Positions 3,316-11,087 of a DNA stretch of 64,000 bases are shown one piece after another. Source of the DNA: Rhabditoides inermis (taxonomy: Eukaryota; Nematoda; Chromadorea; Rhabditida; Rhabditidae); assembly GCA_963966185.1 (NCBI GenBank), contig CAWZYM010000206.1, forward strand, positions 145,001 to 209,000, written 5' to 3'. Within the stretch, counting starts at the first letter, position 1, and each line of letters opens with the position of its first letter. A model generated the notes under the pieces. It searched no databases. It was not told the DNA's origin and was given only the letters and a program-made list of their open reading frames with translations. Position numbers and translations under genes: made by a program.

Positions 3316-6300
3316 ATGAATCAACAACAAGCACAGATGCTGCAGATGCAGCAGATGCAGCAAATGCAGCAACAGCCGAACATCGCCCTGCAACCGCCGC
3401 CGCCGCCGCCGCCGCCGCCGCAGCAGCAGCAGCAGCAGCACCCGCCTCCGCTGCAACAGCCACACCCGCAACAGCCGCCGCCGCCGCCGCCAAATAGACA
3501 GCAGCAGGCTCCTTTCTTCAGCTTCGGCCCGCGCATCCCCACGATCACCCCATATGATCCTTCGAAGGAATCCTTCACCACATTCGCGACGAGAGTACTG
3601 GATTATGCCAATCTCTCCGGTATGTCGGAAGAGTTGGCGAAGCGATTTCTCCCTACCCTCCTTCCTCCACAAGAACGTCGGATGTATGAGACAGTGGCTA
3701 GCAACACTCAGCCTTTTCTCACCAATATGCAGGCTTTCCAAAAAGCCATGTCGTCTTCTTCTCGCCTGAACATACAGCGCAGTCGCCTCTCGCAGTGCCG
3801 CCAGCGAGGAAGGACGGTGGAGGAGTACGCCAAGGAGCTTCGGAGGATAGGAGAGGACGCTCATCCTGCGATCCAGGTCGACAAAATTCCAGCAGTCACC
3901 ACAGCCTTCATCAACGGATTGGACAAATCTCTGAGGGAGCAGGTTCTGCGAGCCGAGCCAAAAGATTTGACACAAGCCATTGACCTTGCCCTCAAGGAAG
4001 AAGCTATCCAGGCCACCGACCAAGACGACCGGATTGCATCTCTCGAGGCGACCGTCGCCGCTCTCGCGCTGAACAACGAGTTCCTCAAACATCGTAACCA
4101 GAACCCGCCGAACAGCGGAGGCAACCAGGGTCGTCCTTCGGGGAGGGGAGGAAAGAAGACTCGCGGAAGGGGACAACGATCGAGCCGCGGGGGATACAAC
4201 AATTCCAGCTACAACAACTACAACTACAATGGCAACGTCGGAAACTACGGCAGCGGACAGGGACAGGGATACAACAGCTACAACGGCGACGTCCCTAACA
4301 GGGGATATCATCAGAACTTCAACGGACAGGGAGGAAACCAGGGTCAGCAAGGAGGACAACAGCAGCATCGGGGAGCTGCATTCGCCGTCATAAATCCACT
4401 CCAAATGACCATCATCGTCTCCCTGCTAGCTCTTCTCGTGCCGGCGGTCGGAGCGACCAACAACGCCTCATTCTACCTCTGCCAGGAGAGGCCGGGCATC
4501 CTGGTCGTTCCACCGTCGCGTCACTCCTGCTCTCTTCCGCCGGTCGACCAAGTAATCCGTACAAAAGTCGACATTTACATACGGAACAGCTCACTCGAAG
4601 CGGTCACCGGATTCCGTTGCTCGAAGTTGCAGTGGTCGCACTGCATCTCTAACACCATATGGATACCGTCGCGACACCAAATCATCACTCGTCGGGAGGC
4701 CGCCACAGCAGAAGAATGCAAACAAGCAGCTCGCCTCCGCCGATTTGATGATCGACCACTCCTACCCGTGCCTGGATCCCCCTCTGTATGGAAGTCGGAA
4801 CCGAAAGAAGCCTTCCCCCCTGGCGCCTTCTGGCAGCAGACACAATGCGGGAGCAGCACCGACATGATCCTTGAGGAGGGAGCTGTCGCAGCACTTCGAT
4901 CGGGCGAGATCATCTCGGATCTAGCTCCGAACCTTCTCGGATGCAAATGGCAACAAGGAGAATGCGTATCTAACACCAGCGCGCTCGTCTGGGAGCCGGT
5001 TCCCGAAAAGGGGTGTCGATTCCTTCACGTAGGGTCGGCAGAGGGGAAGATCGGAGGGCAGAAAAGCGTAGTCATCGAGGAGTTACAGGCTGCCTTCTCC
5101 CTGGCAGACGCTCCAATCGAAGCAGACGCTCGTCGTTGCCTAGATGGAGAGCCGTTTCTCACTACAAGCGGATCCTTCCTTCTGTTTCCAGATCTCTCGC
5201 CCGAGCAGACAGCGGAGCTGAAACACAGGAGGCTCACACCGACCGATCAGCGGAAAAAGAGATCCGCCTCCTTCCGTCCAGAGGGTACCCCTCGAACACC
5301 GAAACACCTCACCACCGACATCTTCTACTACGACGACCCGTTGTTGGAGTCACTCACGCACAACATATCATCGCAAGGCCTGGAGGCAGTGGGAAACTCG
5401 ACGCTTTCGAGAAGGAGGCTTGGGAAGCGTCTATGGACCTGGAATATGACTGAGGAGTTGTTCATCCAAGAAGCTATTCAGATGAACTTCTCCGTCGGCG
5501 AGGAATTCAAACTGTTGATGAGAGCGAACCGCAGAAGGCAGCTACACCACGCTCTGCGGGAATGGATTAAACAAATATCAACCGAGGATCTCGAGTGGGC
5601 CGTATACGGAGCTGTCCAGAATTTTCAACTTGCACCAGAAATGGAAAAAGAACTAGCGGCCGCCTTCTCGGCAAGAGGACGAGATCGACGAGAACGGATG
5701 GTTTCTGCGGGAACCACGCTGGCCCTTCTCACAAGCGGCAGGCATCCCTTTCACGCCTTCGACCCGAAACTGGACGGCGAGCTGGGGATGGTCAGCCCAC
5801 GTCGCACACCCCTGGCTGGAAAAGCTGCAACGGAACTTATGACAAACATTAAAACACTGAGGAAGGAACTGTTGGATGTCTATGCGGAGACGGACCCTTC
5901 TATTCGAGAGAGTTTTCTGCTGACGACACAGGAACCGGCAACCACCACTCCATTGTCATTCACTACGACCCCGTCCGCGCCATCCACAAGTTCCCCAGCC
6001 GTTTCTATAGCCGTCCGTTCCACCCCGACACCAAGAAAAGCGACAACTGTGCGGCCGCCCACATCATCGACTACTGTCCTAGCGAAACCACCTCTCACAA
6101 CGACGAGGAGCCCGCCGCCGATGACGACGAGACCTCCGCCCCCAACAACGACAAAATCTCCATCCACCACAACCACGAGAAGACCGCCCACATCAACGAC
6201 TCCCCTTCCATCGACTACAACTTCTACATCGACGCCGTCCACAGCAGCACCGTCGACCACTCCTGCACCGAGTATCTCCCGACTCTCTCGAGTTGTGAGA

Positions 6301-9500: not shown

Positions 9501-11087
9501 GCTCTTCTCACTCGACGCGATCTGATCGGAAGATTGAGCAAATATCAGATCGTCATCCAAGAATTTGATATCACCATCGAATATCGGAGAGGAAAGGATA
9601 ACGTCGTCGCCGACGCGTTAAGCCGTTATCTCTCGGACGAACAGCGCGACGGGAAACCGTCGAAGGAGACAGTTGCAGCAGTATGCCAGGCCGTCCCGGT
9701 GACGAAGGAGGAGATAAAAAAGGCTCAGCAGGCCGAAGAGTGGATGAGGGAGGCTATAAAAGCACTGAAGGACGGATCAGCATCGTCAAAAACAGCAGCT
9801 CGCTACCTGTCCAGAGACGGGATTCTACACGGTCGTTCGTCAGAAGGACAGCCGATCATCCTGCCCGCCAAGTCCCCTCTCATCCCCACCATCATTCGCT
9901 GGTTTCACGAAAACCCCGACATCTCTGCTCACATGGGAGTGCCGCGCACAGATGCCGCCATCAAGAAGCATTTCGATTGGACCCACCGCCTCCAGTCTGT
10001 GAAGGAGACGCTCAAGGACTGCGTGAAGTGCAGGCTGCGGAAGGACAATCCACACGAGACGACCGTCGAACCTATCTCGTCTCTACCGGTCGAAGCAGGC
10101 GTCATGAGTCGAGTTCACTGCGATTTGATCGGGCCGCTGAATCAGACGGCGCGAGGCCACCGCTACATCATGGTCGTCCAGTGCGCGTTCAGCAAGTTCG
10201 TCTGGTGCAAGAAGTTGCAGACCCAAGACACGACGTCACTGTGTGAGGCCGTATGGGATTTGTACTTCGTATTTGGCAGCCCCGAACTGATTGTGACCGA
10301 CTCGGCGGCCAGCTTCAAGACGGAGATGTTCCAGGAGACGCTGCGGCGGATCGGAACACACCACACCATGTCTAGTCCCTTTCAGCATAATCGAAACGGA
10401 CAAGTGGAAAGGACGAACAAGGTTATCGAGGAGTGTTTGACGTCGTTTCTGAACGAAAAACAGACAGACTGGGACATGTTCTTGGACGCGGTCTGCCACG
10501 CATTCAACACCAGCCCTCATACGACAACTGGAATCGCACCGTTCACCCTGATGTTCGGAAGAGAGGCTCGCACAAGGATGGACGGAATGTTCACAAAGCC
10601 GATACAGCGATTCGCGGACCCATTCGACTACCTGAACTACACGCGCATCCAAATCGAAGCTGCAGTCGAAATGGCGCGCACAAGACTTCAGCAGGCCGCA
10701 CAAAAGCAGATGCGACAATATGACCTGGCTCATCGCACTGCTCACCGCGAAATCGAGGAGGGAGACTCGATATTCGTCAAGAAGCTGCCCCGCGGAAACA
10801 AGCTTACCCCGCTCTTCACCGGACCACACGTCGTCTTGAAGAAAGATGGCCCGCGGCTCATTATCAAGGCAGACAGGAAAGCGACGCGAGAAGTGCACTT
10901 GGACAACGCGCGCCTTTTCAAGAAGAAGACGGAAGGAGAGGGACAAGGACACACGGCACCGCCGGCCGACACACCGGTTCCTGTCGCTACACCGGCCACC
11001 GACGCGTCCAACTCGGGCGGGGAGCCCTCGTCGCTTCCCATCCCTCCTCCCCGTCGTTCTCGCCGAATCGCCGAACGACATCAGTAA
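6447..11087 (+). CDS. ORF2: glycoprotein C-terminal part plus protease-RT-RNase H-integrase
   Basis: The frame is open from 6414; there is no clear ATG of its own, so entry is probably from ORF1. Numbered from 6447: residues 1-270 finish the glycoprotein, with further sequons and one membrane span at about 243-268. Aspartic protease has DSGAS at 361-365. Reverse transcriptase carries YMDD at 798-801 (YMDD rather than the YLDD/YVDD common in gypsy elements). RNase H has Asp 946 in an ESDAS motif. Integrase has a His/Cys finger at about 1161-1195 and D1226, D1285 and E1321, a D-D-35-E arrangement. The tail is Pro/Arg-rich. All catalytic motifs are present, so the enzyme part looks functional. 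Confidence 0.92.
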   Translation: MEERVEAEFRKAYIAICRMQARQVATWWAILKIDPTVGMRTITERRDISARFVGEEVLSVSVCPSIKISERYPAHRVNNTCYALQPVRTVDSRLLFVIPGTRDLTTESAKIPCSQVTPSVWRNGDDTYHSDSGPVEVEQLHSEVSDPSQVQLGHLSLSAPAVFGAAKSSSFPMMLAIGYGASLAAIRQNQEHLMSILRTSGPNPGNASFDFSGVEEMFGNATAFASTSLDTLTGGFFKEILDDLVWVAAGLVFGTVVVVATLAAIKFYCLKKVARSLVNAVDIKDTQPTAPPLESTTHFSDQHLIHELADLLRGPRKPAPYYDYNQLFGNMVNCLIASVKSSTLPYVPLSLHDKTISALWDSGASISYIPCSTLAHLGIDRLDEESPNIKSAATANGGALHFLGRVELTARIGPVVIDHFFLVSEDGECPANALIGTDFMSVLEKKVGRTSLNLGERLLEIGHHRVPLLSSGFKKVSERSIAMLAQCTRTVPAHGICFIEAEPEESIEPDTRFMITGRCDSTVLHPLVGTTTTLLLRNNTDKPMFVNEGETIAHAAAFEDVEVTSPFEAHSDPPEADWEAKVPEMAIPGKDFLEDLNWEGCKLSKKAREELVTIINQYKKAFLLPDGELGCYTGDIEHSITLKPGASIRSQTYRVPLGKQAEVERQVQELLRQGVIERSTSSTVSPVILVRKSDKTLRFVIDLRAVNAATLRGAYDMPNIADICDLSGGYKFFSTLDLACGFFQLKLKESDRWMTAFQVPSGTYQFCRMCMGLAGAPATFMRVARELQRTMQAKLFMYMDDILVISNNETQHVRDLRELLSKLEEAGLKAKLKKCRFGANAVKFLGYIISEQGLRVNPEKVEAVKNYPRPKTTTAIKAFIGLTSYFRRFIARFAEIAAPLHDAATMEKLVWTDAMESAFIRLKEALMSAPVLVPPQINKGYVIESDASCIAIAAVLLQADDEGNLHPVCFASRKLTETERRYPPVETEALALTFALTKFRHYCLNVPTKVVTDHRPLTALLTRRDLIGRLSKYQIVIQEFDITIEYRRGKDNVVADALSRYLSDEQRDGKPSKETVAAVCQAVPVTKEEIKKAQQAEEWMREAIKALKDGSASSKTAARYLSRDGILHGRSSEGQPIILPAKSPLIPTIIRWFHENPDISAHMGVPRTDAAIKKHFDWTHRLQSVKETLKDCVKCRLRKDNPHETTVEPISSLPVEAGVMSRVHCDLIGPLNQTARGHRYIMVVQCAFSKFVWCKKLQTQDTTSLCEAVWDLYFVFGSPELIVTDSAASFKTEMFQETLRRIGTHHTMSSPFQHNRNGQVERTNKVIEECLTSFLNEKQTDWDMFLDAVCHAFNTSPHTTTGIAPFTLMFGREARTRMDGMFTKPIQRFADPFDYLNYTRIQIEAAVEMARTRLQQAAQKQMRQYDLAHRTAHREIEEGDSIFVKKLPRGNKLTPLFTGPHVVLKKDGPRLIIKADRKATREVHLDNARLFKKKTEGEGQGHTAPPADTPVPVATPATDASNSGGEPSSLPIPPPRRSRRIAERHQ

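What the first reader, a model, noticed from the sequence alone, without database searches (positions are those of the whole stretch)
3316..11087. LTR element with envelope-like module between Gag and Pol
In retroviruses and known env-bearing Ty3/gypsy, BEL and errantivirus elements, env follows integrase. Here a signal peptide, about a dozen N-glycosylation sequons, an RKKR cleavage-type site, a mucin-like stretch and a membrane span lie between the Gag region and the DSGAS protease, in the same reading frames as Gag and Pol. That implies a Gag-Env-Pol chain or unusual expression. Identical LTRs show recent mobility with this order.
Basis: partly seen in the sequence, partly recalled or inferred. 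Interest (0 to 1): 0.88.

Follow-up and report, generated by a model that had tools for sequence, protein, structure and literature searches.

The report
Retroelement with envelope before polymerase
A virus-like mobile element in a worm genome carries a herpesvirus- and rhabdovirus-type membrane-fusion envelope protein between its capsid and polymerase genes instead of after them, and many diverged relatives, some of them recently active and some in hookworms, keep the same unusual order.

Summary
The window carries a 10.5 kb Ty3-type LTR element (2017-12515): identical 201-bp LTRs, GGAG target duplication, order Gag - envelope module - PR-RT-RH-IN. The module is a class III fusion glycoprotein: its C-terminal half matches Pfam Monjiviricetes_fusion (5.7e-10) and herpes gB (1.4e-9, below curated cut-off); the N-terminal half folds weakly onto gB and rhabdovirus G. 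In this copy the module is split between two frames (overlap 6414-6540). In intact relatives it is not: ten places have env and RT in one frame of 2,500-2,740 codons. Of 107 RT places found, 36 (about 30 elements) have this env upstream; two have one downstream, from neighbouring copies or fragments. Three deposited hookworm proteins share the order. One lineage sits, identical over 9.3 kb, at three sites with different target duplications, so env-bearing copies moved recently. Env is under purifying selection.

Most likely mechanism, inferred: one Gag-Env-Pol chain threaded through the ER by an internal signal peptide, leaving Gag and Pol cytosolic and Env lumenal, as flaviviruses lay out capsid-envelope-replicase. 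ICTV states that metavirus Env lies downstream of integrase; this is a new variant.

The parts
2013..2016 (.). target-site duplication GGAG (5' copy)
2017..2217 (+). 5' LTR, 201 bp, termini CG...CG, TATA at 2094, AATAAA at 2136
   Evidence: identical to 12315-12515
2218..2235 (+). putative primer-binding site, TGGAGGTCTGTGG..., directly after the LTR
   Evidence: position and TGG start; tRNA not identified, length assumed
3027..3041 (+). internal TATA motif TCCGnTATAAAAGAG upstream of Gag
   Evidence: one of only two in 64 kb, both strands
3316..4404 (+). Gag (capsid domain plus Gly/Asn/Arg-rich NC-like tail)
   Evidence: Retrotrans_gag 8.3e-6, Ty3_capsid 0.0026 (below cut-off)
4405..4458 (+). 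internal signal peptide of Env (end approximate)
   Evidence: hydrophobic segment
4474..5220 (+). Env N-terminal ectodomain (gB domains I-II-like), 10 Cys at the same relative positions as lineage B
5251..5262 (+). RKKR, furin-type site between the two Env halves
5941..6324 (+). mucin-like S/T/P-rich linker
6414..6540 (+). overlap of the Gag-frame and Pol-frame ORFs; the module changes frame here in this copy
6429..6854 (+). Env class III fusion domain (gB DIII-like helix and following domain)
   Evidence: Monjiviricetes_fusion 5.7e-10, Glycoprotein_B 1.4e-9
7179..7253 (+). Env transmembrane anchor
7485..7763 (+). aspartic protease (DSGAS at 7527)
   Evidence: Asp_protease_2 5.4e-9
8514..8993 (+). 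reverse transcriptase (YMDD at 8838)
   Evidence: RVT_1 4.4e-31; Ty3 RT 2.8e-78
9177..9566 (+). RNase H
   Evidence: RT_RNaseH_2 and RT_RNaseH
9876..10382 (+). integrase (zinc domain and catalytic core)
   Evidence: Integrase_H2C2, rve; Ty3 IN 5.8e-22
11330..11466 (+). four ~33-bp repeats (65-88% to the first) upstream of the second internal TATA motif
11482..11496 (+). second internal TATA motif TCCGnTATAAAAGAG
11526..12278 (+). 3' accessory ORF, 250 aa, Arg-rich, net charge +18
   Evidence: no Pfam match
12303..12314 (+). purine-rich tract (one C) abutting the 3' LTR, putative PPT
12315..12515 (+). 3' LTR, 201 bp, identical to the 5' LTR
12516..12519 (.). target-site duplication GGAG (3' copy)
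15073..15992 (+). second, partial copy (Env C-terminal part and start of PR), 99.3% identical to 6679-7598

Best explanation
This is one member of a large, old, still mobile group of nematode Ty3-type LTR elements whose genome order is Gag-Env-Pol. Env is a class III fusion glycoprotein (herpes gB / rhabdo-, nyami- and chuvirus type). Shown: the order, its recurrence, the single open frame in several lineages, recent copying, purifying selection on Env. Inferred: one polyprotein is translated from Gag; an internal signal peptide behind NC threads Env into the ER; the Env anchor stops transfer, so PR-RT-RH-IN is again cytosolic; signal peptidase frees Gag from Env, the element's PR frees Pol, and furin cuts Env between its DI-II and DIII halves. 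Gag buds at Env-bearing membrane and Env fuses the particle with a new cell. The window copy itself carries a frame break inside Env, so as it stands it would not give the full chain without a frame change.
For: Domain order in window. Order in relatives: sequence-inspected lineages A-G; 36 of 107 RT places with env upstream, 2 with one downstream, both from neighbouring copies or fragments. Env and RT in one open frame of 2,500-2,740 codons at ten places (equal open-frame lengths; seven seen directly, one of them cut by the locus end; Gag detected in six of those seven, not in C327). Hookworm proteins P0001-P0003 with Gag-Env-PR(-RT...) in one protein. Class III identity: Monjiviricetes_fusion 8e-9 to 3.7e-19, above cut-off, in A, C, D, E, G; 3.2e-4 in F and Glycoprotein_B 5.3e-8 in B, both below cut-off; PDB gB 7.6e-9 by a profile of B-E; BFVD 38 hits E<=1e-3, those named being mostly mononegavirus-type glycoproteins. 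Recent mobility: identical LTR pairs and 4-bp TSDs in window, C406 and C172; E copies at C172, C284, C407 are 100% identical over 9.3 kb, with different flanks and TSDs GTAT, TATC, GTAC. dN/dS of Env parts 0.07-0.31 over five pairs, with no nonsynonymous change in one half of one pair (small counts). Nearest methionine upstream of the signal peptide's hydrophobic core is 177, 161 and 112 residues away in C, P0001, P0002 and absent back to the stop in D1; no TTTYAG acceptor in 7 of 8 lineages checked. RT and Env trees group the same lineages.
Confidence: 0.72

Rival explanations
1. Same gene order, but Env is expressed separately: from a spliced RNA or an internal promoter, with its own start methionine, and the long open frame is partly a consequence of in-frame packing.
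For: Met just before or in the signal peptide core in A, B, D2 and E; two near-identical TATA motifs in the window, the only two in 64 kb on both strands, although the first lies before Gag and the second before the accessory ORF, not before Env; Cer1 of C. elegans makes an accessory protein from a spliced mRNA (PMC10309623, abstract and passages).
Against: Nearest upstream Met 112-177 residues away in C, P0001, P0002 and none in D1; no TTTYAG acceptor in 7 of 8 lineages within the 300-360 nt checked; frame kept open through Gag-Env-Pol in B, C and E.
Confidence: 0.2
2. The module is a real class III glycoprotein, but no longer used for entry: it serves assembly or budding inside the host, or is a decoy, and spread is only within the germ line.
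For: No evidence here for infectious particles; nematode germ-line elements such as Cer1 form particles without an Env (PMC10309623, passages).
Against: Signal peptide, conserved cysteines, anchor and, in most lineages, a furin-type site are kept, under purifying selection.
Confidence: 0.12
3. Chance features, assembly chimera or a host gene captured once.
For: None found; the adjacent partial copy at 15073-15992 is a rearranged fragment.
Against: Pfam matches above cut-off in five lineages and below it in two more, many loci, deposited hookworm proteins from other genomes.
Confidence: 0.01

Closest known systems
Metaviridae (Ty3/gypsy), including errantiviruses
   Same: LTRs, PBS, PPT, Gag, PR-RT-RH-IN order; RT and IN closest to Ty3 among solved structures.
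   Different: [quoted passage not shown] here it is between Gag and PR.
Dingle, Ty3/gypsy element of the annelid Dimorphilus gyrociliatus
   Same: Ty3-type element with an Env resembling herpesvirus gB.
   Different: The methods speak of the protein downstream from the integrase (PMC7854359, passages).
Atlas virus and other nematode belpaoviruses
   Same: Intact nematode elements with Env from a negative-strand RNA virus type and one 2828-residue polyprotein.
   Different: BEL-type, class II (phlebovirus Gn-Gc) and order Gag-Pol-Env (PMC9094657, passages).
Tas (Ascaris) and the Anisakis BEL protein P0004
   Same: gB-type Env; P0004 Env matches the hookworm Env (N-terminal half 30% identity).
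   Different: BEL backbone with Env after the integrase end. Tas-gB similarity is from PMC9094657 passages; PMC7642597 passages instead give Tas a phlebovirus and Cer-7 a herpesvirus source.
Anakin (mosquito BEL-Pao with chuvirus glycoprotein)
   Same: Class III glycoprotein of chuvirus type captured by an LTR element.
   Different: BEL-Pao; the same group found no clear capture by Gypsy elements (PMC10084718, passages). The place of Anakin's glycoprotein after Pol is recalled, not seen as a sentence.
Cer1 (C. elegans)
   Same: Nematode Ty3-type element without a stop between Gag and Pol; accessory ORF between Pol and 3' LTR, as in the window.
   Different: [quoted passage not shown]
Flavivirus-type polyprotein
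   Same: Works like it: capsid - signal - envelope - anchor - replicase enzymes in one membrane-threaded chain (recalled comparison).
   Different: Unrelated genes; analogy only.
Troyka LTR elements
   Same: LTR termini CG...CG, as in the window element.
   Different: Troyka has 3-bp TSDs and no Env (PMC12440569, abstract and passages); here 4 bp and an Env.

Membership tests
Metaviridae / Ty3-gypsy | Pol order PR-RT-RH-IN | tested here: met
Metaviridae / Ty3-gypsy | RT and IN closest to Ty3 among solved relatives | tested here: met
   RT: Ty3 2.8e-78, best non-Ty3 entry 4.9e-45 (8r0s 'Enzymatic polyprotein'); IN: Ty3 5.8e-22, PFV 2.3e-17
Metaviridae / Ty3-gypsy | LTRs, PBS after 5' LTR, PPT before 3' LTR, short TSD | tested here: met
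   LTR and TSD also at C406 and C172; the tRNA was not identified
Errantivirus and other env-bearing Metaviridae | Env encoded downstream of integrase | tested here: not met
   Env lies between Gag and PR
Class III viral fusion glycoproteins | sequence match to class III family profiles | tested here: met
   Monjiviricetes_fusion above its cut-off in A, C, D1, D2, E, G and hookworm P0001-P0003; below cut-off in F; B matches only Glycoprotein_B, below cut-off
Class III viral fusion glycoproteins | fold of domains I-II | tested here: inconclusive
   [not shown]
Class III viral fusion glycoproteins | fusion loops, trimer, low-pH or receptor-triggered fusion | not testable with these tools
   needs protein
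Troyka | LTR termini CG...CG | tested here: met
   window element only; C406 and C172 have TG...CA
Troyka | 3-bp TSD | tested here: not met
   4-bp GGAG
Troyka | RT position as a separate lineage | not tested
   no reference sequences at hand

The most novel reading that the evidence does not exclude
A deep lineage of nematode reverse-transcribing, enveloped, transmissible elements that make capsid, envelope and polymerase as one membrane-threaded Gag-Env-Pol polyprotein, a genome plan that I found described nowhere for Ortervirales, present at least in this worm and in Ancylostoma hookworms and still active.
Probability: 0.6. Interest if true: 0.92.

Novelty: new variant of a known kind. Interest (0 to 1): 0.85.

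Why it matters
Textbook retroviruses (recalled) and the official description of Metaviridae keep env last, and retroviruses make it from its own RNA. A working Gag-Env-Pol order would mean that a reverse-transcribing element can make its envelope at a fixed ratio with capsid and enzymes by threading one chain through the membrane. It gives a second way for retrotransposons to become retroviruses, shows a class III fusogen living long in Ty3-type elements, and can be tested directly if the host worm can be cultured. It also says that public worm annotations hold such elements as 'integrase core domain protein' or 'hypothetical protein'.

Tried and rejected
Rejected: canonical errantivirus (Env position); single host-gene capture (many lineages); Troyka membership (TSD, Env); programmed frameshift inside Env as the general rule (intact relatives have the module in one frame; D2 and G do change frame, but outside it). 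D1 (C327): no Gag found in its frame. Not finished: a genome scan with PF24664, never answered. Novelty in print: searched the open PMC library; no listed row reported this order, but the listings are capped (8 to 20 rows, of up to 2,373 papers), I saw only passages (and two abstracts) of ten papers, and subscription papers and most preprints are not held. I recall a preprint on env-carrying Ty3/gypsy elements across animals that I could not see.
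Full report
What is there. The window is G000:C206:145001-209000 of a 172.6 Mb assembly. The nematode spliced leader SL1 (sequence recalled) occurs 368 times exactly and its reversed control 0 times, so the host is a nematode; its name is not given. A single LTR element runs from 2017 to 12515. Its LTRs are 201 bp and identical, termini CG...CG, flanked by GGAG on both sides, with a TGG-starting primer site directly after the 5' LTR and a purine-rich run before the 3' LTR. Inside: Gag (Retrotrans_gag 8.3e-6), the envelope-like module, protease, RT, RNase H, integrase, then a 250-aa Arg-rich ORF without Pfam match. 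RT and integrase are closest to Ty3 among solved structures (RT 2.8e-78, best non-Ty3 entry 4.9e-45; IN 5.8e-22 against 2.3e-17 for PFV).

Other copies. The C-terminal piece finds 18 places and the N-terminal half 29. I fetched sixteen 9.3 kb stretches. Lineages: A window; B at C299 (two copies), C300, C406:92-101k, C367; a damaged copy at C331 whose Env C-terminal part is 67% identical to A; C at C243 and C406:248k; D at C327 (D1) and C406:221-231k (D2); E at C172, C252, C284, C407, C410; F at C213; later G at C190. Wherever parts could be placed the order was (Gag) - Env halves - PR - RT - RH - IN; the one irregularity is C367, where the RT-RH unit is repeated. Integrase was not looked for in G. 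Monjiviricetes_fusion: C 4.6e-10, D1 1.1e-12, D2 8e-9, E 3.7e-19, G 1.4e-12, F 3.2e-4 (below cut-off); B has Glycoprotein_B 5.3e-8 (below cut-off) and a weak rhabdovirus fusion-domain match (0.015). Gag is supported in A, B, E, F by Pfam, in C by Pfam below cut-off and hookworm Gag, in D2 by hookworm Gag only (2e-24), in G only by CCHC motifs, and not found in D1.

One chain. B (C406, 2555 codons), C (2663), E (2728, 2728, 2728, 2684) have Gag to integrase in one open frame; D1 has Env to integrase in a frame reported as 2500 codons. Equal open-frame lengths for Env and RT add C146 (2660), C151 (2668) and C74 (2740): ten places in all. Breaks occur: the window inside Env, D2 between Env and PR, G between PR and RT, several B copies in RT. 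The nearest upstream Met to the signal peptide core is 177 residues away in C, 161 in P0001, 112 in P0002, 48 in P0003, and none back to the stop in D1; it is at or within 7 residues in A, B, D2, E, at 20 in F, 58 in G. A TTTYAG acceptor appears in 1 of 8 DNA stretches (G, 258 nt upstream). Hence translation as Gag-Env is the simplest reading, at least for C, D1 and two of the hookworm proteins.

Genome-wide. Of 107 RT places at E<=1e-20, 36 have an Env hit within 6 kb upstream on the same strand, 2 have one downstream and both of those belong to neighbouring copies or fragments (window fragment 15073-15992; next C146 copy); 71 have none. Some of the 36 are repeated or split RT pieces of one element (C367 four, C299 four for two elements, C406 two at 91-95k), leaving about 30 elements. 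30 of the 90 Env places listed have no RT hit downstream. Only 131 of 187 RT candidates were scored, and distant Env could be missed, so both numbers are lower bounds. C87 is a related element without Env: CCHC motifs, then PR, no hydrophobic segment between.

Recent movement and selection. LTR pairs are identical in the window (201 bp), at C406:220915-231513 (240 bp from TG to CA, TSD TAAA) and at C172 (349 bp, TSD GTAT). The 9.3 kb core is 100% identical at C172, C284 and C407 while flanks differ, with TSDs GTAT, TATC, GTAC; the 5' LTR of C172 differs from the other two by 1 of 349 bases. They are three separate insertions of one recent element. dN/dS for Env halves: 0.164 and 0.103 (E, L036/L040), 0.089 and 0.154 (B, L029/L030), 0 and 0.07 (L029/L027), 0.123 and 0.309 (L029/L026), 0.233 for one half of C (L032/L035); Pol domains 0.013-0.314 in the same pairs, except 0.817 for an 11-codon piece that I do not count. 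L036/L037 had no Env change, and 2 nonsynonymous with 0 synonymous changes in PR-RT-RH. Several values rest on under ten changes. Uneven dS between domains hints at exchange between copies.

Other species. The profile of Env from B-E found Ancylostoma ceylanicum ANCCEY_08613 (3.2e-131). Searching with its Env region gave A. duodenale 'integrase core domain protein' (2293 aa, 49% identity), A. ceylanicum Y032_0090g2380 (1954 aa, 38%) and an Anisakis simplex BEL protein (28%). The three Ancylostoma proteins have Gag - signal - Env - PR (- RT - RH, and IN in P0002) in one protein; their Gag is named from weak similarity to the window Gag (P0001 4.5e-9; P0003 8e-7) and to each other, not from Pfam. 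The Anisakis protein has its Env after the integrase end. The best match in this genome to the RT of P0002 is 64% (lineage D), so that hookworm element itself is not here. RT and Env trees agree on A+B, D+hookworm and F+G, with E next to D+hookworm and C unresolved. Whether Env was captured once, then lost in C87 and perhaps in C144 (RT 70% identical to G, Env not detected), or twice, is open.

How it most likely works is given under Best explanation. Shown: order, frames, selection, recent copying. Inferred: expression, topology, processing, particle, fusion. Two things do not fit neatly: a second signal-like hydrophobic segment before PR in D1, D2, E, P0001-P0003 but not A-C, and the internal TATA pair with repeats in the window, which points to a separate mRNA for the 3' accessory ORF; no such pair was seen near Gag in the other lineages (L030 has TATAAAA 284 nt before Gag).

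Compared with print. ICTV: Env, where present, downstream of integrase (PMC7879559, passages). Atlas: Gag-Pol-Env, class II (PMC9094657, passages). Dingle: Ty3 type with gB-like Env downstream of integrase (PMC7854359, passages). Cer1: no Env described (PMC10309623, abstract and passages). Chuvirus captures: in BEL, none clear in Gypsy (PMC7642597, PMC10084718, passages). MDG1-group elements use a small fusogen-like protein encoded upstream of gag (PMC11952523, abstract text and passages). PMC12440569: abstract and passages; PMC5408684 and PMC13269885: passages, the latter only reference-list hits. In the ten paper searches no listed row reported a Gag-Env-Pol order.

Noticed in passing
window 11330-12278: 3' accessory ORF (Arg-rich, 250 aa) with its own TATA motif and four ~33-bp repeats upstream; fragments elsewhere at C363 and C226, plus one weak hit at C289. 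Position like CERV of Cer1. Lineage D2 has a different 307-codon open stretch in the same place.
   Followed up: partly
window 3027-3041 and 11482-11496: The only two TCCGnTATAAAAGAG motifs in 64 kb, before Gag and before the accessory ORF.
   Followed up: partly
window 13627-15992: A LINE-like endonuclease ORF (13627-14601, PF14529 8.4e-13) lies just before the partial Env-PR copy 15073-15992: chimera or nested insertion.
   Followed up: partly
L033, L034, L036, P0001-P0003, just before PR: Conserved signal-peptide-like hydrophobic segment between the Env tail and the protease; topology unexplained.
   Followed up: partly
L036 protease: The usual D[ST]G motif is not found in lineage E; the sequence reads DGGSS at that place.
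   Followed up: no
G000:C367:810967-817846: RT domain repeated five times at 1.5 kb spacing in one B-lineage locus (three).
   Followed up: no
window 37149-37771 and 47095-48513: Long short-period tandem arrays (self comparison).
   Followed up: no
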